The position numbers and the translations under genes are program-made. Under the pieces are notes generated by a model. That model saw only the letters and a list, made by a program, of their open reading frames with translations. It made no database searches and was not told the origin of the DNA. A stretch of 37,566 bases of DNA from Faecalibacter macacae. Its GTDB lineage: Bacteria > Bacteroidota > Bacteroidia > Flavobacteriales > Weeksellaceae. Positions 1 through 14,355 of this stretch are shown here, piece after piece. The stretch spans positions 1 through 37,566 of the forward strand of contig NZ_RDOJ01000023.1 of the NCBI RefSeq assembly GCF_003687725.1, written 5' to 3'. How positions within the stretch are numbered: the stretch's first letter is position 1; each line of letters opens with the position of its first letter.

Positions 1-52
1 GAATTTGAGATAGAAAATAGTTCGAAAAACTTGGATGCCCGAAACTGCAATT

Positions 53-249
53 GCGTATAACGGGCTGCGGCTTGGCGAAGTGCGGGCTTGAATTGAGCGA
101 AAGTTCAATTCAGACCGAGACGTAGCCAAAGCTGTGAGCCTTTTGGTAAATTTAATAAAAAAACAAAAGCAAACAGCTTTTGGCGGATAAAAAGGCGAGA
201 AGTTCAATTTTGAACTTAACCCCGCATTTTGCCAAGCCGATGTTAGCTG
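53..249 (-). repeat. attC-like palindrome, site 1 (type A)
   Basis: The outer boxes are TATAAC (56-61) and GTTAGC (242-247). They do not pair with each other beyond AAC/GTT, because each belongs to a different cassette. Inside, GGCTTGGC pairs with GCCAAGCC, flanked by 7 unpaired bases on the left and 3 on the right. GCGGG/CCCGC extends the stem. Two lateral hairpins (TGAATTGA/TTCAATTCA and AAGTTC/GAACTT) and an apical stem (CCAAAGCTGT/ACAGCTTTTGG) follow. It is nearly identical to sites 4 and 5. It closes the 179-aa cassette at its 3' side. Confidence 0.75.
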
Positions 250-257
250 TAGTTTCT

Positions 258-797
258 TTATTTCTCGTTCGTATCTGGTTTTTGGTAAATCACATTGTCA
301 TTCATATCCAATACTTGATGGTTTTTACAGTCAAATAATCTGTGCTGAATTCCGATATTAGTTAGGATTTTTTCAGCTGACTTTTTTACTTCAAACCATT
401 TCTCGTGATTATCAATAAATTCATAATCCCAAATTTCGTTTGGAATTTCATCAACTTGATTTTTAAATCTTAGAAGTTGTTCTTTAAATTCTATATCAAT
501 TTTAGCATTTCTAAATACAGTTTCAAAACAAACAGGTAAAAAGGCGTAATCTAACTCTTCGTATAATTCAGTTAATGGATCAATTAAAATTGGTGCTAAG
601 CTTTCAAGTTCAATTGAATTATAGGTATAAAGTATTAATGAGTTAATTAGATTTGTGTAATAAAAATCAACATTTTTATCGTATTCCATTAATTCATTTT
701 TTAATAGACCTAATTCATCTAATTCTTCTGCTTTTTTATCCATTGAATCAGAATTTTTATTGTTTCGGAATATTGATTTGAAAATATTGAATTTCAT
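258..797 (-). CDS. Cassette 1: hypothetical protein (179 aa)
   Basis: I do not recognise the family. The protein starts MKFNIFKSIFRNNKNS, has an acidic, charged N-terminal third and a mixed helical body with several Trp/Tyr residues (IWDYEFIDNHEKWFEV). No signal peptide or membrane segment is evident. A longer in-frame start at 893 would put 32 residues inside the next palindrome. That stretch (MLERTNLSF…) is shared with another cassette because it is translated palindrome, so the ATG at 795-797 is preferred; it lies about 27 nt inside the cassette boundary. The TAA stop is 11 nt from the left palindrome. There is no promoter of its own in the short leader, so expression probably depends on readthrough from upstream cassettes. 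Confidence 0.6.
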   Translation of the reverse strand: MKFNIFKSIFRNNKNSDSMDKKAEELDELGLLKNELMEYDKNVDFYYTNLINSLILYTYNSIELESLAPILIDPLTELYEELDYAFLPVCFETVFRNAKIDIEFKEQLLRFKNQVDEIPNEIWDYEFIDNHEKWFEVKKSAEKILTNIGIQHRLFDCKNHQVLDMNDNVIYQKPDTNEK

Positions 798-819
798 ATG
801 AGTACTGTTTTTGAAATTA

Positions 820-1015
820 CAGCTAACGAGCCGAGTATTTGCGAAGAACGGGAGAGAATTTGAGCGAAAGCTCAAGTTCGTTCGTTCAAGCAAATTGCTC
901 TTTTCTAAAACTAATTTAGGTTAATGTTTTTAGAAAAGCAATTTTGCGAGCGGAAAAAGATAGGCTGAAAGTTTACTTTCAGCCCGTTTTTCGCGAAATA
1001 CTATGTTGTACGCAG
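820..1015 (-). repeat. attC-like palindrome, site 2 (type B)
   Basis: Outer boxes are CAGCTAAC (820-827) and GTTGTACGCAG (1005-1015). The basal stem is GTATTTGCG with a near-complement CGCGAAATAC, with the 7-nt and 3-nt unpaired spacers. The left lateral hairpin is TTGAGC-GAAA-GCTCAA and the right one CTGAAAGT/ACTTTCAG. The apical stem pairs TTTTCTAAAAC with GTTTTTAGAAAA. The left box pairs with the right end of site 1 (GTTAGCTG), so both flank the same gene. Confidence 0.75.
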
Positions 1016-1016
1016 T

Positions 1017-1403
1017 TTATTTAATAATCTCGGTCTTTTTTAAAATATTTTCAATTTCAGCATTAGTATATTTTTCTACTGGATCTACTTCTTTATCATC
1101 TCCTTTATGATGATATTCTCCCGTATCAAAAGCATTAAAAATTTTCCAAGAAACCTCAGGGAAAGTATAATTTTTGAAGAAATTTTCATTCGTTAAATAA
1201 TATCCAAATAGATTTGAAATTAAGTCATTAGCAGTGGAATAATCTAAGTCTTTTTTCCAATAATTATGCGCGATTTTAATAGATAAACTTTCAATTATTT
1301 TAGATGGAAATTTTGAAGGATGATTTAAAATTTCTTCAATCTCTTTTTCAGATTTAAGTAATTCTAAGTAAATATATTGTATTTCAATATTTGTAAAATC
1401 CAT
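1017..1403 (-). CDS. Cassette 2: hypothetical protein (128 aa)
   Basis: This is a small soluble protein of unknown family, mostly predicted helical, rich in Ile, Asn, Lys and aromatic residues (YIYLELLKSEKEIEEIL; NEIF-type aromatic middle NLFGYYLTNENFF). No signal peptide, membrane helix or recognisable catalytic motif is seen. The ATG is about 29 nt inside the cassette edge (AAC at 1431-1433) and the stop codon (TTA at 1017-1019) is one base from the end of the repeat-flanking box GTTGTACGCAG. The cassette termini GTTGTACGC and GCGTACAAC match perfectly. Confidence 0.6.
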   Translation of the reverse strand: MDFTNIEIQYIYLELLKSEKEIEEILNHPSKFPSKIIESLSIKIAHNYWKKDLDYSTANDLISNLFGYYLTNENFFKNYTFPEVSWKIFNAFDTGEYHHKGDDKEVDPVEKYTNAEIENILKKTEIIK

Positions 1404-1424
1404 TTATTGAGAGTTGGGATAATT

Positions 1425-1623
1425 GCGTACAACGTTTCGGGGCTTGGCGTCAGTGGCGGAAATTGAAGCGAAAAGTTTCAATTTAGCGACACAGTAAGCA
1501 AAAGCCAATTAATTGAATAAATTTATGAAAAAAGTCAATATAATTGGCTTTTTGCGGAATAGAAAGCCGAAACTTCAAATTATAGCCTTAACCCGCCATT
1601 GCGCCAAACCCTTGTTAGCTGCA
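1425..1623 (-). repeat. attC-like palindrome, site 3 (type C)
   Basis: Outer boxes are GCGTACAAC (1425-1433) and GTTAGCTGCA (1614-1623). The basal stem is GGCTTGGCG with CGCCAAACC (one mismatch), again with a 7-nt (GTTTCGG) versus 3-nt (CTT) spacer. The left lateral hairpin is AAATTGAA/TTTCAATTT around the loop GCGAAAAG. The apical stem is GCAAAAGCCAATTA with TAATTGGCTTTTTGC. The sequence differs from types A and B, but the layout is the same. Confidence 0.72.
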
Positions 1624-1627
1624 GTAT

Positions 1628-2389
1628 TTATTGTAGTATTGTAATAATTTTATGAACAGAATTTGAAAATCTTTTATAATCTAAATCTATTAAAGTTTTA
1701 AATAAAGCCTGATAGTACGTGAAGTTTTCTTTTCTTATAGATTTTAGATGTATTAAATCATTCCTTATGTCATTTAATGTAATTATATTTTGATAATCAT
1801 CATTGTAATCTTCAAACAGATTTATTCCGCTAATTTCTGGAAGAATGTAACGATACTTTTCTTTAAATTTTTGCCACTCAATGTCTTTTTTTGTAAGATT
1901 TTTGCCGTTTAAATTTAGTTCAATATCATCAGGTATTAGTTGATTAAAAAGAGCTTCGAGGGACATTAAAAGTTGTGTGATTCCTTGGAATGATTCACTA
2001 AAAAATGAAATAAATTCATTATATAAATCAATAGGACTCCAAGAATTATTAATGATTTTTGCTTGTAATTCCAAAGACGTTTCTATATGAGCAATTGCGC
2101 AATTATAATATATTGTTACTGGATTTGGTTCTGTAAATACTAGTGGATTATTCTTAGCTTTACTAGGGATTATTCTTGCCATTACATAAGATTCAGAACC
2201 TGAACTCTGGGCTAAAATAATTTTTCCACTATCTTTTAATTTACCAATTTCTTGAAAAAGCTTTTTTAAAAGTTCTTCTTGCTCATTTGGAGGTAATTCA
2301 GATTTTGTCAAATCTACCTTTTTAGTTGATTGAACTTGAATAGGTAGTTTACTAAATTCTGTTAAGGGTTTATTTTCAATTATTTTCAT
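1628..2389 (-). CDS. Cassette 3: HEPN-like hypothetical protein (253 aa)
   Basis: The protein is cytoplasmic by appearance, with no signal peptide or membrane helix. The N-terminal 60 residues are charged (KSELPPNEQEELLKKLF). The C-terminal half is helical and contains LNDIRNDLIHLKS, with Arg209 and His214 forming an R-x4-H motif of the kind found at the active site of HEPN ribonucleases. An upstream helix (ITQLLMSLEALFNQL) would be the second HEPN helix. HEPN proteins are often toxins or abortive-infection effectors, but no antitoxin partner is encoded in the same cassette, so a HEPN fold without toxic activity is equally possible. Start ATG at 2387-2389 is about 30 nt inside the boundary. 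Termini TTAGCTGCA and TGCAGCTAA match perfectly. Confidence 0.6.
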   Translation of the reverse strand: MKIIENKPLTEFSKLPIQVQSTKKVDLTKSELPPNEQEELLKKLFQEIGKLKDSGKIILAQSSGSESYVMARIIPSKAKNNPLVFTEPNPVTIYYNCAIAHIETSLELQAKIINNSWSPIDLYNEFISFFSESFQGITQLLMSLEALFNQLIPDDIELNLNGKNLTKKDIEWQKFKEKYRYILPEISGINLFEDYNDDYQNIITLNDIRNDLIHLKSIRKENFTYYQALFKTLIDLDYKRFSNSVHKIITILQ

Positions 2390-2412
2390 ATGGGTGAAGG
2401 TCTGTCGAATAT

Positions 2413-2610
2413 TGCAGCTAACGGGCCGCGGCTTGGCGAAGTGCGGGCTTGAATTGAGCGAATGTTCAATTCAGACCGAAACGTAGCCAAAGCTGTGAGC
2501 CTTTTGTAAATTTAATAAAAAAACAAAAGCAAACAGCTTTTGGCGGATAAAATAGGAGAGAAGTTCAATTTTGCACTTAACCCCGCATTTTGCCAAGCCG
2601 ATGTTACCTG
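2413..2610 (-). repeat. attC-like palindrome, site 4 (type A)
   Basis: Outer boxes are TGCAGCTAAC (2413-2422) and GTTACCTG (2603-2610). The core stem is GGCTTGGC/GCCAAGCC with 7-nt and 3-nt spacers, lateral hairpins and an apical stem CCAAAGCTGT/ACAGCTTTTGG as in site 1. It differs from site 1 at a few positions and has a one-base deletion in the apical loop (TTTTGTAAAT instead of TTTTGGTAAAT). Confidence 0.75.
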
Positions 2611-3305
2611 CTGTGCATATTTTTTATTCGTTTGTTTCTTTTAATGATTTTGTCGATTGTTTCGTCCTTATAAGACTTATATTCTTCAATATTTTGTGGC
2701 AAAGGAGAACGTTCAAAATTGTCAAATGGAAGACAAAATTTTACTTCGTAATTTTCAGTTACAAAATCTTGAAGTAAAAAGAAGTTTATGTAATTTTCAA
2801 AGTTTACGAAAAGTTTGAAAAAATCTTCATATCGACTAATTGCATTATAAAGTGGACTTTGTTCATTCAAGTAAAATAATCTAATACATTCAAGTGTTAA
2901 GTCAAATCTATCGCTTATTTTTCGGTTTACACCTCTAGCTTGATTAATTGTGAAGCCATTTTTCTTATGTGCAGGAAAAACAATATGTCCTCCAATTGTT
3001 CTTGCAATGTGTTTAAAATCTTCTCTTTCTTTTTCAGTTAACCAATCGTCAAATCGACCTTTGTATTTACCAACAAAATGAGGACACATTCTATCGCTAG
3101 AAAGATTATCAATTAAATTATTTTTTAAAACAATTCTGCCGAATTTACCACCGATTTTTAATGTTTCAAATAAGATTGATTGTTCAGAAGGAAGCTTTTT
3201 ACTCCATAAGAATTTATGAATTTCATAAAGTTTTGGACTATCAGAATCTGGATCGCCACAAAGGCTATCTTTTCTAAAATCAAAATTTATGTCGATTTCA
3301 ATCAT
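2604..3305 (-). CDS. Cassette 4: DUF6994-like protein (233 aa)
   Basis: The sequence has the pattern I associate with the DUF6994 family: an N-terminal DFRKDSLCGDPDSDSP…YEIHKFLWSKKLPS, a central GGHIVFPAHKK and INQARGVNRKISDRFDLTLECIR, and a C-terminal aromatic RYEDFFKLFVNFENYINFFLLQDFV. The family has no established biochemical function that I know. It lacks a signal peptide. The ATG is at 3303-3305, about 46 nt inside the cassette edge. The stop codon TAA (TTA at 2604-2606) is formed by the recombination box itself, so the reading frame ends exactly at the palindrome. The private termini differ at one base (GTTACCTG versus CAGCTAAC). Confidence 0.68.
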   Translation of the reverse strand: MIEIDINFDFRKDSLCGDPDSDSPKLYEIHKFLWSKKLPSEQSILFETLKIGGKFGRIVLKNNLIDNLSSDRMCPHFVGKYKGRFDDWLTEKEREDFKHIARTIGGHIVFPAHKKNGFTINQARGVNRKISDRFDLTLECIRLFYLNEQSPLYNAISRYEDFFKLFVNFENYINFFLLQDFVTENYEVKFCLPFDNFERSPLPQNIEEYKSYKDETIDKIIKRNKRIKNMHSR

Positions 3306-3344
3306 TTAACGTTTCAGTATTATACGCAATTTTTGGATGCATTA

Positions 3345-3543
3345 CAGCTAACGGGCCGCGGCTTGGCGAAGTGCGGGCTTGAATTGAGCGAAAGTTCAAT
3401 TCAGACCGAGACGTAGCCAAAGCTGTGAGCCTTTTGGTAAATTTAATAAAAAAACAAAAGCAAACAGCTTTTGGCGGATAAAAAGGCGAGAAGTACAATT
3501 TTGCATTTAACCCCGCATTTTGCCAAGCCGATGTTAGCAGAAG
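3345..3543 (-). repeat. attC-like palindrome, site 5 (type A)
   Basis: Outer boxes are CAGCTAAC (3345-3352) and GTTAGCAGAAG (3533-3543). The interior is almost identical to site 1 over about 190 bp, including the 7-nt/3-nt spacers, lateral hairpins and apical stem. It belongs to the cassette carrying the 194-aa gene. Confidence 0.75.
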
Positions 3544-4118
3544 GTTTTTTGTTTTCGTAATTCCTTTTCAGCCAACAATTCATTCATTTTATTTCGTGAC
3601 AATTTTCGACCTTTTAAATATCTTCCGTTTATAGAATTTTCGTAATAATAATCAATAAAATACTCTAATTCATAGTCCTTCATTTCGCTCGGTTTTAGAA
3701 ATCTTTTATCATCAGTAATTTGAGAGTCAGATTCATATTTTTGATTTTCCATTTCAATAAATTTTGAAATTGGAATTTCCTCGATAACATCAATAATTTC
3801 ATAGTGACTTAAATTTAATGTTTGAGCACCAATAATTTTAAGATATTCATTTAGAATTCGTTTTTCGATGAAAATTTTTCCTCCACCGAATTTATGTCTA
3901 TCTTTTTGATTTTTCTTTACTCCTGAAATCCAATACTCATCTCCGTTTTCAATATCAAAAAAATTCCCTGCAATTCCATTTCCATTTAATGTTTGAAATG
4001 CTTTTCCGTCAAAATAAATGGTTTTTCCGCTTTTTGAAAATGAAACAAGTGCAATCCAGGCAGGACCATTATCACTAAATCCTGATTTGAGTTCAATATA
4101 TTTTATTTCGGATTTCAT
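3534..4118 (-). CDS. Cassette 5: conserved hypothetical protein (194 aa)
   Basis: The N-terminal part (IKYIELKSGFSDNGPAWIA followed by FSKSGKTIYFDGKAF and GNFFDIENGDEYWISGVKKN) has the look of a conserved soluble Bacteroidota family of unknown function with a predicted beta-rich N domain. The C-terminal part is acidic and helical. No signal peptide or catalytic motif is clear. A start at 4217 would add 33 residues that come from translating the neighbouring palindrome, so the ATG at 4116-4118 is chosen, about 27 nt from the cassette edge. The TAA stop overlaps the recombination box GTTAGCAG. The cassette termini agree over TTAGCAGAA. Confidence 0.65.
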   Translation of the reverse strand: MKSEIKYIELKSGFSDNGPAWIALVSFSKSGKTIYFDGKAFQTLNGNGIAGNFFDIENGDEYWISGVKKNQKDRHKFGGGKIFIEKRILNEYLKIIGAQTLNLSHYEIIDVIEEIPISKFIEMENQKYESDSQITDDKRFLKPSEMKDYELEYFIDYYYENSINGRYLKGRKLSRNKMNELLAEKELRKQKTFC

Positions 4119-4144
4119 TTCTGCGGTTTGTTGGTTAAAACTTT

Positions 4145-4338
4145 CTGCTAACGAGCCGAGTATTTGCGAAGAACGGGAGAGAAATTGAACAAAGTTCAAG
4201 TTCGTCCGTTCAAGCAAATTGCTTGGCTAAAACTAAATTAGTGTATTGTTTTAAGAAAAGCAATTTTGCGAGTGGAAAATTATGACAAAAAAGTTAGCCT
4301 TCAACCCGTTTTTTCGCAAATACTTTGTTAGCAGAAGT
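4145..4338 (-). repeat. attC-like palindrome, site 6 (type B)
   Basis: Outer boxes are CTGCTAAC (4145-4152) and GTTAGCAGAAGT (4327-4338). The basal stem GTATTTGCG pairs with CGCAAATAC. The left lateral hairpin is TTGAAC-AAA-GTTCAA, where site 2 has TTGAGC/GCTCAA: a compensatory A-T for G-C exchange. The apical stem is weaker than in site 2. Confidence 0.72.
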
Positions 4339-4342
4339 ACTT

Positions 4343-5125
4343 TTAGTAAATTGTTAAATGATCTTTTAGAATCCAACCAATAGTTTTCTTTCCACTACTA
4401 TTATAAAATTCAGTATAAACGAAATATTTAGATTCAGCAATTGAATTAATCATATCTCCATAGACCAAATAAGACGTTTTTTTACTATTTATATTAGGTG
4501 AGTTACAAAAATGAGTTTTCGAGGCAATTACCATATATTTTTTTTGTACATTTTTTTCATAATTATTATAAATAATCTCGTTTGAATTATTAGAATTACT
4601 TAGAAATCTACTATTTATATAACCTATGTTGTTTTCATAAGAATTTGAATATGAGTTATATGTTTTTACGATTACTTTATCCCAATAACCTACTTTGTTT
4701 AAAAATTTTATTTCTTCTCCGTATGATAGTTCACCAATAATATTATTACCTGTATTTGGAGTACTTCTAATGTTTACTTTTTGGGTATTTACATACTTCT
4801 TTGAACTATATCTAGAATTGTCAGAGTTGGAATAATTTGAGTTCTTTTTTGTTTCAGAATTATTATAGTTATTGTAATTAGAATTATTTGATGAACTATT
4901 TAATCTAGAGTTATTATAATTTGAATTATAATTTGGTTTATTGTATTCTAAGTTAGGATTATAATTTCCCGGATAACTATAATTGTCTGTTACAGTATTG
5001 TTAGGATAAGTTCTAACGTGAGGTCTTACATATGTTCCATCTTTTCTGTAATATCCTTTGACGTTTACTTGTGAAAATATGTAAATTGGAGTTATTAAAA
5101 AAAATATTAATAAAAATTTATTCAT
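4343..5125 (-). CDS. Cassette 6: secreted Asn-rich protein with SH3-like domain (260 aa)
   Basis: An N-terminal signal peptide (MNKFLLIFFLITPIYIFSQ) predicts export. It is followed by a motif common in Bacteroidota exported proteins, YYRKDGTYVRPHVRTYPN with a later SYPGNYNPN. Residues of about 60-110 are a low-complexity Asn/Ser/Tyr linker. Residues of about 112-180 resemble a bacterial SH3 domain (KVNIRSTPNTGNNIIGELSYGEEIKFLN…GYWDKVIV…IGYINSRFL), a fold that often binds cell wall or surface polymers. The last 65 residues may be a second, weaker SH3-like unit ending in IGWILKDHL. The ATG is about 21 nt inside the boundary. No enzyme domain is seen. Local composition (AAT/AAC runs) is extreme even for this AT-rich DNA. 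Confidence 0.75.
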   Translation of the reverse strand: MNKFLLIFFLITPIYIFSQVNVKGYYRKDGTYVRPHVRTYPNNTVTDNYSYPGNYNPNLEYNKPNYNSNYNNSRLNSSSNNSNYNNYNNSETKKNSNYSNSDNSRYSSKKYVNTQKVNIRSTPNTGNNIIGELSYGEEIKFLNKVGYWDKVIVKTYNSYSNSYENNIGYINSRFLSNSNNSNEIIYNNYEKNVQKKYMVIASKTHFCNSPNINSKKTSYLVYGDMINSIAESKYFVYTEFYNSSGKKTIGWILKDHLTIY

Positions 5126-5146
5126 TTATTCAGGTTTAAAGTATTT

Positions 5147-5338
5147 CTGCTAACGAGCCGAGTATTTGCGAAGAACGGGAGAGAAATTGAACGAAGTTCA
5201 AGTTTGTCCGTTCAAGCAAATTGCTTGGCTGAAACTAAATTAATTGAAAGTTTTAAGAAAAGCAATTTTGCGAGCGGAAAAAGATGGGATAAAAGTTTAC
5301 TTTCAGCCCGTTTTTTGCGAAATACTATGTTGTACGAT
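5147..5338 (-). repeat. attC-like palindrome, site 7 (type B)
   Basis: Outer boxes are CTGCTAAC (5147-5154) and GTTGTACGAT (5329-5338). The basal stem GTATTTGCG is opposed by TTGCGAAATAC (one extra base). The left hairpin is TTGAAC-GAA-GTTCAA and the right one AAAGTTTACTTT. It is near-identical to sites 2 and 6. Confidence 0.72.
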
Positions 5339-5341
5339 GTC

Positions 5342-5764
5342 CTATTCTTTCACAAAATAATAGTTCTCACCATTTTTAAATTTAACAATAATAGTATCAT
5401 TTTTTAAATCTTCTAATATTTTTGACTCATTTTTAGATTTAAATTTATTAACAAATACTACAATAGAATCTTTATTATATTGATATAATCCATTAATTGG
5501 TAAAGTTTTATTAATTACACCAAATTTAGATGAGTTAATTTCTAAGATATCATTTTCAATTTTTTTATTTGCAATTACAACTAAACCTTTCTCTTTTTCT
5601 TCGATAAATTGGTTTAGAAATCCAATATTTAAAATTTTGTTATCTATAGAAAATTTAGAATTCATAGAATTACCAATGTATTTATATTCGAAAAAATGAT
5701 GTGATGGGCAAGCGATTAAAACAAAAAAACTTGGAATTGTTAATAAGAATTTTATATTTTTCAT
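5342..5764 (-). CDS. Cassette 7: predicted lipoprotein (140 aa)
   Basis: The N-terminus MKNIKFLLTIPSFFVLIAC is a lipoprotein signal peptide with lipobox L-I-A-C, so Cys19 should be lipidated and the protein anchored in the inner or outer membrane. The mature part is about 120 residues, with alternating hydrophobic patterns that suggest beta structure and a C-terminal IIVKFKNGENYYFVKE. I do not recognise the family. The ATG at 5762-5764 is about 30 nt from the cassette boundary; the TAG stop is 3 nt beyond the box GTTGTACGAT. Termini GTTGTACGAT and ATCGTACAAC match perfectly. Confidence 0.65.
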   Translation of the reverse strand: MKNIKFLLTIPSFFVLIACPSHHFFEYKYIGNSMNSKFSIDNKILNIGFLNQFIEEKEKGLVVIANKKIENDILEINSSKFGVINKTLPINGLYQYNKDSIVVFVNKFKSKNESKILEDLKNDTIIVKFKNGENYYFVKE

Positions 5765-5785
5765 TTATGAGGTCTCAATTAGGAT

Positions 5786-5981
5786 ATCGTACAACGAGCC
5801 GGGTATTTTGCGAAGAACGGGAGGAAATTGAACGAAGTTCAATTCGTCACGAACTGAGCAAATTGCTCTTTTGTTTTGATAAATTTAAGAAATAAATTGA
5901 AACAAGAGCAATTTTGCGAGAGAAAAACATAGTCTGAAAGTTTACTTTCAGACCGTTTTTCGCAAATACCATGTTACACGC
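5786..5981 (-). repeat. attC-like palindrome, site 8 (type B)
   Basis: Outer boxes are ATCGTACAAC (5786-5795) and GTTACACGC (5973-5981). The basal stem is GTATTTTGCG with CGCAAATAC. The left hairpin is TTGAAC-GAA-GTTCAA and the right one CTGAAAGT/ACTTTCAG. The apical stem pairs AAATTGCTCTTTTGTTT with AACAAGAGCAATTTT. Confidence 0.72.
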
Positions 5982-6508
5982 TTTTGCGTAGCTGTATGAA
6001 AAATTTTGAATTGAACATTTGAAAACAGAATTTGCAGCTTGATATTCTTATAATTTAATGGAAAAAGCGGAAGTTTCAATTTTGGAAAAAGCACAGTTTT
6101 TTAAGAAAGCGATAAGTTTCAGAAAATAATAGAAAACATAATCTCGGAATATAAAATTTCGGTAAAAAATCGAGTTTGAAAAAGCAGAAAACGACGCTAA
6201 AAAATACAAAGCGGAATTTGTTCGAAAAATAAAGAAAATTAACTTTTGAAATATGAAAAGTGTGTTTGTTTTTTAAACTAAATTTCAAGAAAACGAAAGA
6301 ATTTTGTTTTTATAAAATCCCAAAATCTTAAACAAAACTTCAAGAACGTTTAAATAATACTGAAAATGTAAAATTAGAAAACATCAAATTTTCGGTTCAT
6401 AAACTAAGTATGAAAATAACTAAATCCGAGGTTTGAAAATTGTGAAAAATCAAAAATAAAATCGGTAAAAAAAGAAGTTCAAACATTACAGAAACCCATT
6501 TGGCAATT
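5982..6508. other. Cassette 8: no credible gene (527 bp)
   Basis: The cassette has matching private termini (GTTACACGC / GCGTGTAAC) and its own palindrome (site 8). Its interior is AT-rich, with an A-rich plus strand and many stops. The only readings are a Phe-rich 70-codon frame on minus (6076-6288), which looks like the complement of Lys-rich sequence, and a 24-codon plus-strand frame from 6059. Neither resembles a real protein. It could be a decayed gene, or a cassette that carries a non-coding RNA or promoter. Confidence 0.55.
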
Positions 6509-6710
6509 GCGTGTAACGTTTAGGGTATTGCCGAAGGCGGGGAAATCGAAGCGATAAGTTTCGATTTTGCACCGAGGCGAGCCAAAACGAATTATTAAGA
6601 GTTAAATTTATAAATTAAAAACGAATAAAATTCGTTTTTGGCGGAGATAGAAGCACAAAGCTTGAATTTAGCACTTTAGCCCCGCTTTTGGCAATACCTT
6701 GTTAGCAGTA
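6509..6710 (-). repeat. attC-like palindrome, site 9 (type D)
   Basis: Outer boxes are GCGTGTAAC (6509-6517) and GTTAGCAGTA (6701-6710). The basal stem GTATTGCC pairs with GGCAATAC, then GCGGGG with CCCCGC, with spacers GTTTAGG (7) and CTT (3). The left lateral hairpin is AAATCGAA/TTTCGATTT around GCGATAAG, a compensatory variant of site 3 (AAATTGAA/TTTCAATTT). The apical stem is GCCAAAACGAATT with AATTCGTTTTTGGC. Confidence 0.74.
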
Positions 6711-6711
6711 G

Positions 6712-8124
6712 TTATAATAATTTAAGAGTTTCACTTATGTTTTTTACTGTATGCTCTCCGTGAAAAAACTTATTGATAACTTTTGAGTAATCTTTTTCAT
6801 TTCCAATTACTTCTCGCAATGTACTCTTCATAAAATCCTTATCGGAAGTTGGTGTGTCACTCTTTAATAAAAGTCGAATCCACTGTTTCATTTTTTCTTT
6901 CCCGATTTCTTTTTCTATGCTAAATAAAATCAAAGGTTGATAATCATAACCGTAAGTTTCTCTGTCGTTAATGTCAGCTAAACTGGAAATCTCACCGATT
7001 GGTTTAAATTTAAAATCTTCATCTTCTACATACTCCAAACTACTTTTGAGCGATTCTTTAACTTTCTGTTCCATTCCTATGCTCTCAGCAAATTTTAAAG
7101 ACATAAATTCCGCAAAACCTTCGTCAAGCAAATTCTCTAATGTAGTGTTACAATTTTTTATTGTTCCAAAATAATAATGGCTCAATTCGTGTGCCAATGT
7201 CAATAAAAATCCCCCTTCCAATTGTTTGTCAAAAGTTGCCTTCAAATCACTTGGCGGATTACCACAAAGTGTAAAAGTTGGATTACTAGCAAAAGCAAAA
7301 TAACCTTTTTCATTTGCGGTCAAATACGCCTGTACCCAATGTACTTTTTCGAGGTATGGGATATTGGTATAAGAGCTCAAAAAATCTACAACCTTGCCAT
7401 TAATTTTATCAAATTCAGCAACCTGATTTTTCGTGAAATTTGCATTTAGCAACGTAATATTTTCGGCTTCTTGTATATCATATTTTCCGATGAAAATATA
7501 AGGTTCTCTTGGGCTTTCGCTTACGAAATGTCCTCTTTTGGCATTTATAGGTTTTGAGCCATTAATGTAAATTTGTTCGCAGTCTTCACAAATGAGTTCA
7601 ATATCATATTTTACAAGTTCGTATTGAAAGTCATTGTCAATATCATACAATGTAGGAAACCAAGCAGATTGATAGCCATCCATTCGTAATAATCCATTCA
7701 TAAAGGCTATATTGCCTCTCCAATCGGCTTTTTGATAATTTTCAGAAATGGTATCATTAATAACTGGAAATTTGCCAACATATCTAAAGCGTAATTTTTT
7801 TGGTAGAAATTTTTGACCTTTCACATCAGCTGGAAAATAGTACGAAACCGATTCGTAAGTTTGTAAGCTATCCGACAATTCACGTTTATATCCAAGTAAA
7901 AACTCGTTAGGTTCTACACTTTGTATATTAACGATATTCATTCCCTTATTTAGGCGTATAAGATAGTTGCTGATTTGAGAATAGTCACTTAAAATAATAT
8001 CACACTCAATTGTCCCGTTTTCAACTGAAAATTTTGCCGTACCTGATATTTTTGGGATTTTATCTTGAGCATTTGTTGTTAAACTCAATAATAAAGATAA
8101 AAGAATAATAAAATTTTGTTTCAT
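6712..8124 (-). CDS. Cassette 9 (first in array): secreted M1-like zinc metallopeptidase (470 aa)
   Basis: A signal peptide (MKQNFIILLSLLLSLTTNAQ) predicts export. His312-Glu313-Leu-Ser-His316 is the zinc-binding HExxH, and Glu335 follows after exactly 18 residues in LLDEGFAEF: the HExxH-x18-E signature of the gluzincin (M1/M61-like) aminopeptidase clan. The N-terminal 250 residues are beta-rich, like the N-terminal domain of M1 enzymes. The usual GAMEN exopeptidase motif is replaced (FAFASNPTFTLCG), so the specificity may differ or it may be a structural relative. The frame could start upstream at 8160 or 8175, but 8175 overlaps the predicted transcription start, and the signal peptide fits the ATG at 8122-8124. 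It sits next to the array-head promoter and should be the most strongly expressed cassette. Termini match over TTAGCAGTA with one later mismatch. Confidence 0.85.
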   Translation of the reverse strand: MKQNFIILLSLLLSLTTNAQDKIPKISGTAKFSVENGTIECDIILSDYSQISNYLIRLNKGMNIVNIQSVEPNEFLLGYKRELSDSLQTYESVSYYFPADVKGQKFLPKKLRFRYVGKFPVINDTISENYQKADWRGNIAFMNGLLRMDGYQSAWFPTLYDIDNDFQYELVKYDIELICEDCEQIYINGSKPINAKRGHFVSESPREPYIFIGKYDIQEAENITLLNANFTKNQVAEFDKINGKVVDFLSSYTNIPYLEKVHWVQAYLTANEKGYFAFASNPTFTLCGNPPSDLKATFDKQLEGGFLLTLAHELSHYYFGTIKNCNTTLENLLDEGFAEFMSLKFAESIGMEQKVKESLKSSLEYVEDEDFKFKPIGEISSLADINDRETYGYDYQPLILFSIEKEIGKEKMKQWIRLLLKSDTPTSDKDFMKSTLREVIGNEKDYSKVINKFFHGEHTVKNISETLKLL

Positions 8125-8160
8125 TTGTTTGGAGATGTTTCTACTACGTATGTCGGTCAT

Positions 8161-8175
8161 AATTACTGCTAACAC
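8161..8175 (-). other. Array head: attI-like junction (half site)
   Basis: The private terminus of the first cassette ends here as TTACTGCTAAC (8163-8173), but no palindrome follows; instead it joins AT-rich chromosomal DNA (ACTCAAATATACG). On the minus strand this is …GAGTG then TTAGCAGTA, the arrangement expected where cassettes insert at a primary attachment site. That this is an active attI is inference. Confidence 0.5.
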
Positions 8176-8176
8176 T

Positions 8177-8207
8177 CAAATATACGAATATAGATAATAT
8201 ATACAAA
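8177..8207 (-). promoter_or_regulatory. Promoter reading into the cassette array (Pc-like)
   Basis: On the minus strand there is TTTG (8204-8207), a 19-nt spacer and TATATTTG (8177-8184). This is an exact match to the Bacteroidota housekeeping consensus (-33 TTTG/TTG, 19-21 nt, -7 TAnnTTTG). The predicted transcription start falls on or next to the GTT crossover at 8171-8173, so whatever cassette inserts there is transcribed. This parallels the Pc promoter of integrons. Confidence 0.75.
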
Positions 8208-8501
8208 TTATTTTTTATTACTCAAAATTCTCATTATTAGTACATTTTTGTTAAGTTAATAAATATCAAAGATTAGATATTTATCTTCGTAAATACAACT
8301 TCGTATATCTTAATATAATAATATTTGAAATGTTAAAGTTTTATTATCATAAAATATAACAGAGTAAATTATTTACAACAAAATATATTATTAGTAAAAT
8401 TTTTTCGATAAGCTTAGAATGACAAGACCAGTAAAACATTTATCGTTTCGGTCAACAAAACAGGCCTAACAATTAGTAGGCGATCATCAATTCATTAATT
8501 C

Positions 8502-8537
<36 letters not shown>

Positions 8538-8565
8538 GAATGCTTGAAAAATTGCATTGAAATAG

Positions 8566-8730
8566 TAAACGTTAAAAAAATAAATAGAAGAAGAGAAAAG
8601 AATGATTTAGCGAACGATAAAGAGTTATTTAAATTATTCCTCGGATGAAATTTATTTTTAGATGTAGATTTAAGCAATGTCTTGCTTGTGCTGAGCTAGC
8701 CGAAGTATTGGTTCGTTTTTTTGACATTTG
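8566..8730 (+). repeat. Dispersed intergenic repeat, family 2, copy 1 (degenerate)
   Basis: It shares an ordered set of words with 15930-16103, 17503-17631 and 17756-17901: ACGTTAAAAA, GCGAACGATAAAGAGTTATTT, then GATTTAAGCAATG…CTTGCTTGTGCTGAGCT and TTGGTT. This copy lacks the closing TTACTTTTTT hairpin that ends the others. Confidence 0.5.
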
Positions 8731-8872
8731 AGATTAGTTTGTGAATAGAAGCAATGCAATTAAAAATAGTTTATTCATATTGTGATTATTTCTTATCGAA
8801 TTTAGCTGATAATTTCCAATTTTATGGTGTTTTTTTAAACTCAGAATTGTTAATTTTTATTAGATTAAAACT

Positions 8873-8880
8873 TAACTTTG
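8873..8880 (+). promoter_or_regulatory. Peptidase E promoter, -7 element
   Basis: TAACTTTG matches TAnnTTTG and lies 18 nt before the ATG at 8899. It overlaps the alternative TTG start at 8878, which argues for translation from 8899. The -33 element is not clear: a TTG lies upstream, but at about 23 nt spacing. Confidence 0.5.
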
Positions 8881-8898
8881 TTCAAAATAAATTACAAA

Positions 8899-9618
8899 AT
8901 GATCAATCCAAATTATCGTTTACTTGTGATTAGTACAAGTACAATTCATGGTAGTGGATATTTAGAATATATTCGTGAAGAGATTTTAGACTTTTTACAA
9001 ACCGACGAACTACTTTTTATTCCTTTTGCACGTCCTTCAGGGATTTCGCATGATGATTATACACAAAGTGTAAAAGATGCGTTAAATCCTTTTGGAATCA
9101 AGGTTTCTGGAGTTCATAGTTATGATGATCCAAAAGAAGCTGTAAATAATGCGAAAGCTATTTTTATTGGAGGTGGAAATACATTTTTATTACTTAAAAC
9201 TTTGTACGAATTAGGTTTGGTTGAGGTTTTAAGAGAAGTTGTCGCAAACGGAACGCCATATATGGGAAGTAGTGCAGGTAGTAATATGACTGGTTTGACG
9301 ATTGGTACAACGAACGATATGCCTATTGTTTATCCGCCAAGTTTTGACGCTTTACAATTTTTACCGTTTAATATTAATCCGCATTATTTAGATCCAGATC
9401 CAAATTCGACGCATAAAGGAGAAACGAGAGAAACACGTATTAATGAGTTTCATAAATTCAACGAGCAAACTGTTATAGGTTTACGCGAAGGAAGCTGGTT
9501 ACGTGTGGAGAATTCTACAATTGAATTAAAAGGAAATTTAACGGCTCGAATTTTTAAACCAAATCAAGAACCGGTTGAAGTTGAATCAGGTATTTTAAGT
9601 GAAGAGATTTACATTTAA
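8899..9618 (+). CDS. pepE: Dipeptidase E (peptidase S51), 239 aa
   Basis: A cytoplasmic serine peptidase that removes N-terminal Asp from dipeptides (Asp-Xaa) in the characterised enterobacterial enzyme. The nucleophile motif GSSAGSN carries Ser125; Asp140 (TNDMPIV) and His162 (NPHYLD) sit at spacings equal to those of the E. coli Ser-Asp-His triad. A GGGNTF loop at 91-96 is typical of the family. Length is close to the usual 229-240. The ATG at 8899 is preferred to a TTG at 8878, which falls inside a promoter element. It is a single gene followed by its own terminator. Confidence 0.93.
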   Translation: MINPNYRLLVISTSTIHGSGYLEYIREEILDFLQTDELLFIPFARPSGISHDDYTQSVKDALNPFGIKVSGVHSYDDPKEAVNNAKAIFIGGGNTFLLLKTLYELGLVEVLREVVANGTPYMGSSAGSNMTGLTIGTTNDMPIVYPPSFDALQFLPFNINPHYLDPDPNSTHKGETRETRINEFHKFNEQTVIGLREGSWLRVENSTIELKGNLTARIFKPNQEPVEVESGILSEEIYI

Positions 9619-11148: not shown

Positions 11149-11496
11149 ATGATGAATACTAAAGTTTTTAAAATGTCTTTTGCCAGTGTGTATCCACATT
11201 ATGTAAAGAAAGTGGAGACAAAAGGCCGAACGATTGCAGAATTACATCAAGTAATTGAATGGTTAACGGGTTATACAACTTCTGATCTAACTCGAATTAT
11301 CGAGAATAAAATTGATTTTGAAACCTTTTTTGCTGAAGCAAAATTAAACCCTAATGTAGATAAAATTAAAGGTGTAATTTGTGGTTATAGAGTAGAAGAG
11401 ATAGAAGATCCTTTGTATCAAAAGATTCGTTATTTAGATAAATTAATTGACGAATTGGCGAAAGGAAAATCGATGGATAAGATTCTTAGGGAATAA
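11149..11496 (+). CDS. DUF2200 family protein (115 aa)
   Basis: The sequence [24 protein letters not shown]…EWLTGY is the typical start of the DUF2200 family, small cytoplasmic proteins widespread in bacteria whose biochemical role is unknown. The C-terminal part includes [34 protein letters not shown], also typical. Length fits the family (about 115-120). Two adjacent ATGs (11149, 11152) are possible starts. Transcribed alone and followed by a terminator. Confidence 0.85.
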
Positions 11497-11525
11497 ACCT
11501 CAACTATTTCGTTGAGGTTTTAAAT
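11496..11525 (+). terminator. Terminator of the DUF2200 gene
   Basis: AACCTCAAC-TATTTC-GTTGAGGTTTT, overlapping the stop codon. The A-rich left arm could give weak termination in the other direction for the HEAT-repeat gene. Confidence 0.75.
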
Positions 11526-11526
11526 A

Positions 11527-13074
11527 TTATTTGAAATACATGGTTAAATTTTCGGTAGGATTTTCATTGAAATATTTTCTTTCTTTTAAAACAGAATCCA
11601 CGTAAAGTAAAGATTCTTTTGCTTTTTCAATCTGATAGTTTGTTGGAACTGAATAATATTTATTCATATTGGTTTTCCACTTCATGATGTAATTTTGTGC
11701 AATATTCCTTACATTCTCGTTTTCATCAATCAAACCGAACATCAAATCATTTATTGTATCATAATTTCCAATTTTCGAGAATAATTTTAGCATAGATACT
11801 TTTAAATCTTTACCATTATTAATGAAAACTTCTCGTGCTTTTTCAATAACTTCATTTGTAGGATAGTTTTCTAAATAATCTACAATCAAATTTCTAAGCC
11901 CAATTAATTCTGTATTTAGATTCTCTAATGCAAATTCAAATGCTGATTTTGATTCCAATTTTTGAAGTGCTAAAAATGCTATTTTTTTAATTTTAACATT
12001 TTTAGAGTATAAATAATCATTAATTAAGGATTCGTATTCTTTAGCATTTAATTCGGCTAAACCACAAATTGAACCATTTATATTTTCTTTTTTTATCAAA
12101 TTTTGATGGTAAATTTCGATAAAATTTATGTTTTTATTTCGAAGAGTAAATCTTGCGAAATTTCTAATTAAAGCTGATTCATCTACAATATATTGCTCAA
12201 TTATTTTTTCAAAACCAGGTGAATCTTTTAATAAATACAACGTTTCATATCTGATTTTTGCAGCTTTTTCGTTTAAGAATTTTTGTATTTGATTGTGATC
12301 AAATAATTCAAATCGCTTAAGAGAAATATGACGAACAATCAAAGATTTATGATTAATAAAATAGCTAAGTTCTTGATTTGTAATATCAGCAATTTGAATA
12401 AATTCTTTAGCTATAATTCGAACAGATTTTTCATTAAATTGGTTTAAATTCTCTAAAATATACTTCCTGTTTTCTATGGTTAGAAAATGAATAACCTCAT
12501 TGTAAATGGGTTTTAAATCAACCCTTTCTACTTGTTGTAACCAATAAAATTGATTCAAATTCTCAACAATATACTTACTATTTTCTGGTTTTAGAAAGGT
12601 TTTAAACGAATTATGTGCTGTTATTCTTACGTTTTCTACCCAATCTGCTAAACGAAAAATAAAATAAGGTAAAGTCTCTGGATTTTGAATTTCGGTCAAT
12701 TTAGTTAAAGCATATTCGCGTATATATCCATTATAATTCAAAGATGCAATAGTTAAAATTGACGTAAAATCTTGTTCATTAAATAGATCTTCAGCTTTAT
12801 TTAAATCATTTAGTTTGATTTCACAATTTCTTGCAGTTTGATAAATGTCTTTTTTGGAAATCGTTTGATTAAATAAGTTTAAAATTATTTTAAGTGAAAT
12901 ATCTCTAATTTCTTTATTCGAATCCAATATAAAAGGAAAAATATGTGAAATATAAGTTGGAGTTGCTCTTGTTTTGATTTCTATTAAAGCATCAATCCTT
13001 TCTGACGTATTAATTTCTCTAAAAAATAATGTTTTTTTATATTTTACAATATTTAGTAATTGCCAAATTTCCAT
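11527..13074 (-). CDS. HEAT-repeat protein (515 aa)
   Basis: The protein is built of successive pairs of amphipathic helices with conserved Arg/Asp patterns (SNKEIRDISLKIILNLF; GYIREYALTKLTEIQNPETLPYFIFRLADWVENVRITAHNSFK; LIVRHISLKRF; ENVRNIAQNYIM), which is the HEAT/PBS-lyase-like repeat pattern. Such solenoids act as protein-binding scaffolds. It has no signal peptide, no membrane helix and no enzymatic domain. Partner and role are unknown. It is a single gene between two terminators, convergent with the DUF2200 gene. Confidence 0.78.
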   Translation of the reverse strand: MEIWQLLNIVKYKKTLFFREINTSERIDALIEIKTRATPTYISHIFPFILDSNKEIRDISLKIILNLFNQTISKKDIYQTARNCEIKLNDLNKAEDLFNEQDFTSILTIASLNYNGYIREYALTKLTEIQNPETLPYFIFRLADWVENVRITAHNSFKTFLKPENSKYIVENLNQFYWLQQVERVDLKPIYNEVIHFLTIENRKYILENLNQFNEKSVRIIAKEFIQIADITNQELSYFINHKSLIVRHISLKRFELFDHNQIQKFLNEKAAKIRYETLYLLKDSPGFEKIIEQYIVDESALIRNFARFTLRNKNINFIEIYHQNLIKKENINGSICGLAELNAKEYESLINDYLYSKNVKIKKIAFLALQKLESKSAFEFALENLNTELIGLRNLIVDYLENYPTNEVIEKAREVFINNGKDLKVSMLKLFSKIGNYDTINDLMFGLIDENENVRNIAQNYIMKWKTNMNKYYSVPTNYQIEKAKESLLYVDSVLKERKYFNENPTENLTMYFK

Positions 13075-13104
13075 TGGATAAAATTAGGTAATATAAAATC
13101 AAGA

Positions 13105-13131
13105 AAAAAGCCTTTCCATTATGAAAGGCTC
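13105..13131 (-). terminator. Terminator of the DUF2798 gene
   Basis: On minus: AGCCTTTC-ATAATG-GAAAGGCT followed by TTTTTTCTTG, 20 nt after the stop of the 76-aa gene. Confidence 0.85.
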
Positions 13132-13150
13132 AATTTTTTAGTATTTGAAA

Positions 13151-13381
13151 TTACTTATAGTTTTTATTTTCGCACATTTCAGTCAGTTTTTTAGCTAAAG
13201 GAGAGAATAAAAGGGCTGAACAATATGCAACAGGAAACATAATTGTCCGAGATTTTAAAAACAGTAAATACCAATTTTCGGTAAAGCCAAAATTTCTAAA
13301 TACACCTACTAAAGCCATAACTATTGACATTGGAAATACGATAAATAATAGACTTAAAAATTTGATATGTTTTTTTTTCAT
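13151..13381 (-). CDS. DUF2798 family membrane protein (76 aa)
   Basis: A very small inner-membrane protein with two hydrophobic segments (about residues 7-27 and 46-64) and a positively charged N-terminus (MKKKHIKF). The pattern FLSLLFIVFPMSIVMALVGVFRNFGF…PVAYCSALLFSPLAKKL fits DUF2798, a family of short two-helix proteins without known function. Length is typical. Independent transcription unit with its own terminator. Confidence 0.75.
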   Translation of the reverse strand: MKKKHIKFLSLLFIVFPMSIVMALVGVFRNFGFTENWYLLFLKSRTIMFPVAYCSALLFSPLAKKLTEMCENKNYK

Positions 13382-13428
13382 TATTAGTAAAATTTATATT
13401 ACAAAACTACTTTCTTAAGAGATTTTTA

Positions 13429-13550
13429 TATGTAAATCACTTTAAAATGCTTTGTGAAGTTGAAATAAATTCAGCTTGATAAATGTAATGTTATCCTGAA
13501 TTTATTTCAGAATCTCATTTTACTAACGTTTTATTCAGAATTTCATCATA
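13429..13550. repeat. Dispersed intergenic repeat, family 1, copy 1
   Basis: The first ~55 bp (ATGTAAATCACTTTAAAATGC, the palindrome GAAATAAATTC and AGCTTGATAAATGTA) recur almost unchanged at 16162-16220. The part TTTATTTCAGAATCTCATTTTACTAACG followed by ATTCAGAAT recurs near 15812-15860. No gene in this stretch. Confidence 0.7.
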
Positions 13551-13566
13551 TTTGGTACAATACAAT

Positions 13567-13591
13567 AAAAGCATCTATAAAAGATGCTTTT
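13567..13591 (-). terminator. Terminator of the SDR gene
   Basis: AAAAGCATCT-ATAAA-AGATGCTTTT, directly beyond the SDR stop on the minus strand, with T-rich sequence after it. Confidence 0.8.
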
Positions 13592-13596
13592 AAAAT

Positions 13597-14355
13597 CTAT
13601 GATGAAGTAAATCCACCATCTAATGCAATTGCTTGTCCATGTAAAAGACTAGCTTTATCAGAAAGAGCCCATGCTACAAATTCTCCAATTTCTTCAGTGG
13701 TTCCTAAACGTCCTATTGGTTGTAAATGTGCCCATTCTTCTTCAGTTCCCATCGTACCGGATTTAATTAGCTGATCTAGCATTTCAGTTCGAATAATTCC
13801 TGGACATACTGCATTTATTCTGATGCCTTTTTTCCCATACTCTAAAGATGCTGTTTTAGTTAAACCAACTACTCCATGTTTAGCAGCTATATAAGCTGAT
13901 ATACCAGGTTTGCCTACTAGACCTCCAATACTTGCAGTATTTATTATAGCTCCTTTAGTTTCTTGTTTTAGCATTTGATTAATTTGTAATTTCATCGAGG
14001 TCCAGACTGATTTTAAATCAGTTTGGATGATCTTATCAAATTCTAAATCATCATAATCTTTAAACTCAGAAGATGGACCAGAAATCCCAGCATTATTAAA
14101 AGCACCATCAATTCTTCCAAATTTTAAAACGATAGTTTCCATCATAAGTTTTAAGTCATTTTCTTTGGAGACATCAACAACTAAACTCTCAATTTTTTCA
14201 TTGGAATCTATTAATTTTATAGTTTCTTGCAGTGAATCGGAATTAATATCTGTTAAGAATAAAATAGCCCCTTCACGTGCTAAAACCTTTGAAGTTCCAC
14301 GACCAATTCCTGAACCAGCACCTGTAACTAATATAACTTTATTATGTAAAAGCAT
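13597..14355 (-). CDS. Short-chain dehydrogenase/reductase (252 aa)
   Basis: A classical SDR: NAD(P)-binding TGAGSGIG (11-18), structural NNAG (87-90), catalytic Ser142, Tyr155 and Lys159 in the YxxxK form, and a C-terminal GQAIALDGGFTS. An Asp at the end of the second strand (Asp36, LFLTD) suggests NAD(H) rather than NADP(H). The substrate cannot be read from the sequence. The gene follows a cupin gene with a 5-nt gap and is surely co-transcribed with it, suggesting oxidation or reduction of a small carbonyl/hydroxy compound processed by the same pathway. Cytoplasmic. Confidence 0.9.
   Translation of the reverse strand: MLLHNKVILVTGAGSGIGRGTSKVLAREGAILFLTDINSDSLQETIKLIDSNEKIESLVVDVSKENDLKLMMETIVLKFGRIDGAFNNAGISGPSSEFKDYDDLEFDKIIQTDLKSVWTSMKLQINQMLKQETKGAIINTASIGGLVGKPGISAYIAAKHGVVGLTKTASLEYGKKGIRINAVCPGIIRTEMLDQLIKSGTMGTEEEWAHLQPIGRLGTTEEIGEFVAWALSDKASLLHGQAIALDGGFTSS

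What the first reader, a model, noticed from the sequence alone, without database searches (positions are those of the whole stretch)
1..8172. Integron-like gene cassette array in a Flavobacteriia genome, without an integrase
Nine one-gene cassettes, all recognisable genes in the same orientation, are separated by ~195-bp palindromes with invariant AAC…GTT ends. Each gene fits tightly between boxes and has almost no leader. This is the layout of integron arrays, but the sites are much longer and more branched than typical attC sites, and no IntI is present. Integrons are rarely reported in Bacteroidota, so this may be an unusual or separate cassette system.
Basis: partly seen in the sequence, partly recalled or inferred. 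Interest (0 to 1): 0.9.

Follow-up and report, generated by a model that had tools for sequence, protein, structure and literature searches.

The report
A second, Bacteroidota-type integron system
This stretch is part of a gene-cassette array laid out like an integron, and a recombinase unlike the usual integron enzyme, encoded beside a sister array in the same genome and beside such arrays in related bacteria, likely moves the cassettes; some plasmid segments with the same cassette ends hold genes annotated as antibiotic-resistance genes.

Summary
In detail: nine 180-189-nt AAC...GTT hairpin boxes separate cassettes on one strand, 8 of 9 with a clear gene. The decisive feature is elsewhere: the two ENDS OF EACH CASSETTE are ~15-nt inverted repeats peculiar to that cassette, with a constant mismatch at position 11, while the two ends of one box match only by chance. 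Exchange at G|TT would leave just that. The array ends in an attI-like site with a promoter-like motif. It lacks a recombinase, but a sister array in the same genome starts 139 bp from a divergent 354-aa tyrosine recombinase; the layout recurs in 29 of 35 relative loci (164 of 164 upstream sites divergent). Two near-identical elements from two genera show one cassette gained or lost at G|TT. The recombinase lacks the IntI insert (75 of 75 relatives) and scores below the IntI cut-off: not a canonical integron. Sites occur in 116 of 276 genomes of the order, and on plasmids, where lnu(H), catB and mef(C)-mph(G) lie between such ends. A 2026 Riemerella paper reports homology-free integration of a gene with 27 bp before and 140 attC-like bp after it, within the range of these cassettes. 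Recombination is untested. New variant of a known kind.

The parts
59..244 (-). attC-like site (box 1), 186 nt
245..824 (-). cassette gene segment, ORF 258-800 (180 aa, no Pfam hit), inverted ends
825..1007 (-). attC-like site (box 2), 183 nt
1008..1430 (-). cassette gene segment, ORF 1017-1403 (128 aa); a 96% identical unit in G021 has other neighbours and both borders at GTT
1431..1616 (-). attC-like site (box 3), 186 nt
1617..2419 (-). cassette gene segment, ORF 1628-2389 (253 aa)
2420..2605 (-). attC-like site (box 4), 186 nt
2606..3349 (-). cassette gene segment, ORF 2604-3305 (233 aa, DUF6994); ends match imperfectly
3350..3535 (-). attC-like site (box 5), 186 nt; a 95% identical site lies on Empedobacter stercoris plasmid pLPY03
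3536..4149 (-). cassette gene segment, ORF 3534-4118 (194 aa)
4150..4329 (-). attC-like site (box 6), 180 nt
4330..5151 (-). cassette gene segment, ORF 4343-5125 (260 aa, SH3_3)
5152..5331 (-). attC-like site (box 7), 180 nt
5332..5792 (-). cassette gene segment, ORF 5342-5764 (140 aa)
5793..5975 (-). attC-like site (box 8), 183 nt
5976..6514 (-). cassette segment without a convincing gene; ends still inverted repeats
6515..6703 (-). attC-like site (box 9), 189 nt
6704..8173 (-). first cassette of the array, next to the attI-like site: ORF 6712-8124 (peptidase M1-like), inverted ends
8174..8206 (-). attI-like site with promoter-like motif: TTG (8204-8206), 19 nt, TATATTTG (8177-8184), AGT, then GTT of the first cassette
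   Evidence: same in C18 and relatives
8286..8303 (.). 18 nt shared with the leader just before the recombinase start on C18; no recombinase follows here
   Evidence: alignment of two sequences; tblastn of the recombinase on 8101-8950 gave one hit at E 9.8

Best explanation
This is a cassette array of an integron-like system in which a XerA-like tyrosine recombinase (not IntI) likely excises and inserts single-gene cassettes at a G|TT point beside long hairpin sites, and a promoter-bearing attI-like site is predicted to receive and express the newest cassette. Shown by sequence: a cassette is TT...gene...AAC, hairpin body, G; its two ends are complementary over about 15 nt; arrays begin at a conserved TATATTTGAGT|GTT site; in 22 of 30 loci the recombinase start lies 134-235 bp from that point, divergent. 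Inferred: one strand of a free cassette folds into R arm, unpaired 2/6-nt spacer, L arm and branched tip (the attC plan), the recombinase binds the two arms and exchanges one strand at G|TT, and the constant mismatch at position 11 sets strand and direction. The window array has the attI-like site but no recombinase of its own and would be served in trans from C18.
For: Own genome, 39 complete cassettes: end positions 4-9 match in 36-39, 12-15 in 33-37, position 11 in 0. Relatives, 102 distinct end pairs: 90.9% of ten positions match against 47.7% in 2000 permutations (927 matches, highest permutation 536); across a box 48.9% in 89 pairs. 35 loci with a recombinase: 29 have sites upstream, 164 of 164 divergent, 2 sites downstream. 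attI motif directly before GTT in 19 of 30 loci, with TTG exactly 19 nt further up in 11 of those 19. One extra cassette at G|TT between elements L114 and L115 of two genera, blocks 99.9-100% identical. Shared-unit alignments end within 10 nt of a cassette head in 26 of 62 left and 26 of 62 right ends, random 1.5%. In 80 named loci the strict cassette signature is strand-specific: upstream 54 against 0, downstream 47 against 2, from 44 of the 80 loci. Catalytic R, K, H, R, H in 17 of 17 aligned recombinases, Y in 16 of 17. Genomes with the long recombinase (E <= 1e-80) have sites in 52 of 55 cases, others in 56 of 93, p = 2e-6 (my count; test). Outside support, section 11 of PMC13148043: in Riemerella a gene integrated without homology together with 27 bp before and 140 bp after it, the tail attC-like. 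Here leaders are mostly 25-49 nt and trailers to AAC mostly 11-20 nt; with a 124-nt site the tail up to G|TT would be about 128-141 nt.
Against: No recombination was observed. The long recombinase is rare outside the family: 4 of 296 phylum genomes and 9 of 276 order genomes, so 107 of 116 site-bearing order genomes lack it. In 28 site-bearing genomes I picked, a recombinase of 39-54% identity lies within about 11 kb of a listed site in 16, six of those with stops or cut short; 12 show none near a listed site (lists are truncated; my count). 36 of 80 named recombinase loci show no strict cassette signature, some with 10 kb held on both sides (e.g. L189, L194, L199, L244). 6 of 35 family loci have no site upstream. 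The attI motif is missing in 11 of 30 loci, 7 of these with an implausible first-cassette call, and 8 of the 19 lack TTG at that spacing; the motif may be kept for transcription alone. Many loci are not independent (L114, L115, L116 share near-identical parts). Alignment ends also cluster at AAC (5 left, 11 right of 62); part of this is an IS91-like element at AA|C. The Riemerella fit is by length and fold only: I did not hold that sequence nor check that strain for the recombinase.
Confidence: 0.85

Rival explanations
1. A canonical integron remnant (CALIN): ordinary attC sites whose IntI was lost and which an IntI moves in trans.
For: Same layout, AAC/GTT ends, hairpin sites; true IntI is present in 84 of 296 phylum genomes.
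Against: No TIGR02249 match over cut-off in the own genome (best stretch 106 bits; whole protein 185.5 bits, cut-off 265). The array-side recombinase lacks the IntI insert: 41-42 residues in 75 of 75 against 83 in 8 of 8 IntI. In one search only one IntI genome is labelled same class. Pairing runs to position 15, and 77 of 119 5' ends have C or T at position 6, against GTTRRRY.
Confidence: 0.05
2. Cassettes are moved by homologous recombination between the repeated boxes, and the recombinase has another job.
For: Full-length boxes of one type are 76-93% identical within the genome, so homologous exchange is possible.
Against: Borders of shared units concentrate at GTT; in L114/L115 the two boxes around the extra cassette differ in sequence yet the change is exact at G|TT. 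Homologous exchange does not make cassette-specific complementary ends. Recombinase and attI motif occur together.
Confidence: 0.07
3. The palindromes are MITE-like elements inserted between fixed genes.
For: Repeated, hairpin-forming, non-coding, spread over at least eleven contigs.
Against: Units shared between genomes are gene plus box with GTT at both borders; gene ends, not box ends, carry matching inverted repeats; sites beside recombinases point one way, 164 of 164.
Confidence: 0.02

Closest known systems
Integrons (IntI / attI / attC; class 1 and chromosomal)
   Same: Tyrosine recombinase divergent from tandem single-gene cassettes, attI-like start, exchange at G|TT, hairpin sites with R arm, unpaired spacer, L arm and variable tip, promoter-like motif reading into the first cassette.
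   Different: Recombinase lacks the IntI insert and has a ~75-residue N-terminal extension; outer arm ~15 nt with constant mismatch at 11 and core GTTRNNNG rather than GTTRRRY; the promoter-like motif lies in the attI-like site; sites up to 189 nt. (Integron properties partly recalled.)
XerA-type recombinases (NF040815; PDB 4a8e, 5hxy)
   Same: Best family score 214.5 bits, cut-off 220; 4a8e is the best PDB hit by sequence.
   Different: XerA resolves chromosome dimers at dif (recalled); here the gene sits beside cassette arrays. By fold IntI4 2a3v ranks first and XerA 5hxy second at near-equal E, TM-scores 0.45-0.53.
CALIN (attC clusters without integrase)
   Same: Arrays without an adjacent recombinase, as in this window.
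   Different: Core and outer arm differ from canonical attC as far as tested.
Homology-independent aph(3')-IVb integration in Riemerella anatipestifer (PMC13148043)
   Same: 27 bp before and 140 attC-like bp after the gene, no homology, same family Weeksellaceae; the paper says lnu(H) behaves likewise, and lnu(H) on pLPY03 lies between ends matching at 10 of 10 positions.
   Different: Section 11 names no recombinase or attI and calls the mechanism not fully elucidated.
Treponema-type integrons with inverted integrase (recalled)
   Same: Some Flavobacterium, Cytophagales and other loci have the array downstream of and co-directional with the recombinase.
   Different: Other recombinase family and sites.

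Membership tests
Canonical integron | IntI integrase with the IntI-specific additional domain | tested here: not met
   Segment at query 243-283: 41-42 aa in 75 of 75 recombinases, 83 aa in 8 of 8 IntI; TIGR02249 185.5 bits, cut-off 265
Canonical integron | Tyrosine recombinase gene beside the array | tested here: met
   C18 of the own genome; 29 of 35 relative loci. Not met by the window array itself
Canonical integron | attI insertion site between recombinase and first cassette | tested here: met
   Motif before GTT in 19 of 30 loci, 22 of 30 at 134-235 bp; by sequence only
Canonical integron | attC core GTTRRRY / RYYYAAC | tested here: not met
   Position 6 is C or T in 77 of 119 5' ends; pairing runs to position 15
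Canonical integron | attC fold: R arm, unpaired spacer, L arm, variable tip, extrahelical or mismatched base | tested here: met
   Predicted fold of three joined free-cassette junctions; L-arm pairs with double changes 17 of 17 in the predicted consensus of 46 sites
Canonical integron | Cassettes gained or lost exactly at G|TT | tested here: met
   L114 against L115, one case; 26 of 62 left and 26 of 62 right ends at cassette heads
Canonical integron | Detected by the IntegronFinder attC model | not tested
   Model not available; Rfam scan of the window gave 0 matches at gathering score
Canonical integron | Recombinase recombines folded attC with attI | not testable with these tools
   Needs a bench test
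Canonical integron | Promoter reading into the first cassette | tested here: inconclusive
   TAnnTTTG in 19 of 30 loci, with TTG at 19 nt in 11; the Bacteroidota promoter consensus is recalled, transcription not shown
MITE / repeat insertion | Box moves alone between fixed genes | tested here: not met
   Shared units are gene plus box; no strain series of one species was available

The most novel reading that the evidence does not exclude
Bacteroidota run their own integron: a cassette-exchange system built on a XerA-like recombinase without the IntI domain, arrived at separately from classical integrons, spread through Flavobacteriia, Cytophagales, Sphingobacteriaceae and Chitinophagales, and the unnamed machine behind homology-free uptake of resistance genes in Riemerella and its kin.
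Probability: 0.5. Interest if true: 0.95.

Novelty: new variant of a known kind. Interest (0 to 1): 0.9.

Why it matters
Integrons are defined by IntI. Here the whole layout recurs with another recombinase and another site in a class where, in my sample, only one genome had true IntI. It offers a candidate enzyme, attI and site for an open observation in Riemerella, would explain gene turnover and broken assemblies at these repeats, places genes annotated for resistance between such cassette ends on plasmids, and gives a natural comparison for how folded single-strand sites could be recognised without the IntI insert.

Tried and rejected
Rfam scan of the window: no match. tRNA scan: none. Recombinase remnants in window 8101-8950: one hit at E 9.8. 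A pattern for one box type found 17 sites on 8 contigs. SOS-type motifs in the 300 bp before 36 recombinases: CTAA-N5-TTAG 0, GGA-N5-TCC 6, no case for SOS control. Phage collection: no site match. Plasmid collection with the recombinase: 415 records, all under 60% identity. Literature: ten searches showed no description of this system; the library lacks most subscription journals and preprints. Seen of papers: PMC13148043 section 11 and passages; passages of PMC9668308, PMC9024848, PMC8618304, PMC8565304, PMC4961963; all others listings only. Tree (quick method, 50 rows): IntI is one clade with support 100 on a long branch, but the new recombinases are not shown to be one clade apart from it, so separate origin is undecided. 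The first thought that exchange might lie at AAC (from L114/L115) was dropped: those two junctions are 2416-bp IS91-like insertions. Rows dropped: one search kept 62 of 104 alignments (at least 85% identity, different sequences, ends not at a sequence end); one search left out 5 of 80 recombinases (stop or under 330 residues) and 2 of 10 IntI loci. One search keeps some wrong site calls (e.g. L122), which lowers its match rates. Model E-values are rough, hits per genome were capped (18, 12), and no shuffled-genome control was run for them.
Full report
What is there. The window (G000:C16:1-37566) begins inside an array. Nine boxes of 180-189 nt, AAC...GTT, lie at 59-6703; of the nine segments between them and up to 8173, eight hold a clear gene, all on the minus strand. 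Pfam over its cut-off names three of the eight: DUF6994, SH3_3 and peptidase M1; PADLOC names none. The array runs off the contig end.

The key signal. In gene direction each cassette starts GTTNNNNNNNANNNN and ends with its near-complement. In the window this holds for the nine cassettes, with extra mismatches in three. In 13 stretches of the own genome chosen by earlier hits, 52 box hits (two antisense ones left out) lie on 11 contigs, 44 of them full or nearly full; seven of these contigs are 3-13 kb long. In 39 complete cassettes positions 1-3 never vary, 4-9 match in 36-39, 12-15 in 33-37, position 10 in 27, position 11 in none: the 5' end always has A, its partner never does. In 119 cassettes from 22 loci of relatives: 4-9 in 108-115, 12-15 in 96-110, position 10 in 91, position 11 in 1, chance beyond 15. 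Permuting partners among 102 distinct pairs gives 47.7% matches against 90.9%; the two sides of one box match at 48.9% in 89 pairs. So the complementary ends belong to the gene unit, and a box in an array borders two different cassettes. That is the logic of integron cassettes, where R'' and R' of one free cassette pair (recalled).

The site. Joined as in a free circle, three window cassettes fold with a 10-bp arm including AAC/GTT, in two of the three followed outward by the mismatch and 4 more pairs; then 2 and 6 unpaired nt, a stem of 7-12 bp, and branches (RNA parameters). The inner stems covary: 16 of 22 pairs in 44 own boxes, 17 of 17 in 46 sites of the ~124-nt class from many genera (structure predicted from the same alignment, no slide control there). 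Of 90 sites in relatives 53 are 123-125 nt, 6 are 156-159, 19 are 180-189, 12 other.

The recombinase. The best IntI-profile match in the genome is a 354-aa protein on C18, 139 bp from the start of the first cassette of a sister array, divergent; a dinB-like gene follows (my reading of the translation). It scores 214.5 for XerA/NF040815 (cut-off 220), 193.1 XerC, 185.5 IntI (cut-off 265), 180.5 XerD. It lacks the IntI insert and has a ~75-residue N-terminal extension, modelled as a small alpha/beta domain (pLDDT 84, pTM 0.54); the best PDB matches by fold are IntI4 and XerA. Catalytic residues are kept. Its closest relative with a name is from Faecalibacter bovis, 88%.

Linkage. Of 40 stretches fetched from family members, 35 hold a recombinase (44-88% identity); 29 of these have sites upstream, all 164 on the strand pointing away, median 1.07 kb to the nearest; 2 sites lie downstream. 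The single-contig genome G021 has 42 sites in two blocks (about 1981-1988 and 2016-2043 kb), the second ending beside the recombinase. In 80 named genome contigs (several are the same genomes) the strict signature occurs upstream 54 times against 0 on the other strand and downstream 47 against 2; 44 of 80 loci contribute, 36 show none, many of these with little sequence on the array side but some with 10 kb on both. The downstream cases are co-directional arrays, e.g. Flavobacterium enshiense and F. difficile. In the family sample 52 of 55 genomes with the long recombinase (E <= 1e-80) and 56 of 93 others have sites (my count; Fisher p = 2e-6). In the order sample sites occur in 116 of 276 genomes and the long recombinase in 9, all 9 with sites; in the phylum sample the long recombinase is in 4 of 296. 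Of 28 site-bearing genomes that I picked without the long form, 16 have a recombinase of 39-54% identity within about 11 kb of a listed site, six of them with stops or cut short; 12 have none near a listed site (lists truncated).

attI. The array starts at ...TATATTTGAGT|GTT. In 30 loci examined (C18 plus 29 relatives), the distance to the recombinase start is 134-235 bp in 22; the TAnnTTTG form directly precedes GTT in 19, with TTG exactly 19 nt upstream in 11 of them. This fits the Bacteroidota promoter as I recall it, so transcription would begin at the edge of the first cassette. The window has the same sequence and, further up, 18 nt of the recombinase leader of C18, but no recombinase: a second attI-like site, served in trans (inference).

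Movement. L114 and L115, from two genera (codes g5 and g26), share blocks of 99.9-100% identity; L115 has one extra cassette of about 1.04 kb with both junctions at C|GTT, and two 2416-bp IS91-like insertions. Units shared between the window's genome and G021, G044 or another genus mostly begin and end at GTT with different neighbours. Over 62 alignments (not independent) 26 left and 26 right ends fall within 10 nt of a cassette head, 1.5% expected; 5 and 11 fall at AAC.

Plasmids and print. Sites match plasmids of Empedobacter, Chryseobacterium, Myroides, Flavobacterium and Riemerella: 8 records with a 124-nt query, 3 of them over at least 80% of it, and 3 with a 186-nt query, of 72,556. lnu(H) on pLPY03, catB on pRA0846 and mef(C)-mph(G) on p1681-tetX lie between ends matching at 10 of 10 positions; in the latter two the genes run antisense. 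PMC13148043 (section 11) reports that aph(3')-IVb entered Riemerella without homology with 27 bp before and 140 bp after the gene, the tail folding like attC, mechanism not elucidated. Here leaders are mostly 25-49 nt and trailers mostly 11-20 nt including AAC, measured in 77 cassettes of the own genome and G021; with a 124-nt site the tail to G|TT would be about 128-141. This is a fit of length and fold, not an identity test. [quoted passage not shown] in my phylum sample true IntI is in 84 of 296 genomes, one of them labelled as the window's class.

Verdict. It works like an integron (0.85). By the IntI and core-site tests it is not a canonical one. Recombination, strand choice and transcription are predictions.

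Noticed in passing
L115:7958-10373 and 11396-13810; L251: A 2416-bp element with an IS91/Y2-type transposase frame (my reading) and a tyrosine recombinase is inserted twice at AA|C of two sites; an annotated IS91 transposase plus tyrosine recombinase lies beside a site on a Myroides plasmid. It may specialise in these sites.
   Followed up: partly
window:31334-36924: Type II-C-like CRISPR-Cas operon (Cas9-like 1453 aa, then Cas1- and Cas2-like frames), judged from the translations only.
   Followed up: no
window:18111-21463: Two similar subtilisin-like proteases of 536 and 534 aa in tandem, judged from the translations only.
   Followed up: no
window:16444-17400: IS110-family transposase (Pfam).
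   Followed up: no
L038:2194-4187: One C18 cassette carries a type II restriction pair: methyltransferase antisense, restriction enzyme sense (PADLOC).
   Followed up: partly
L247, L248, L249: catB, lnu(H) and mef(C)-mph(G) on Weeksellaceae plasmids lie between cassette ends matching at 10 of 10 positions.
   Followed up: partly
G109, G113, G054, G008, G203, G453 and others: Recombinases of about 40% identity to the one here, some short (277-302 aa), others full length, stand near arrays in genomes without the close form.
   Followed up: partly
L176, L214, L198, L225: Array downstream of and co-directional with the recombinase, the inverted layout.
   Followed up: partly
sites overall: Site lengths cluster near 124, 158 and 186 nt, steps of about 30 nt, unexplained.
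   Followed up: no
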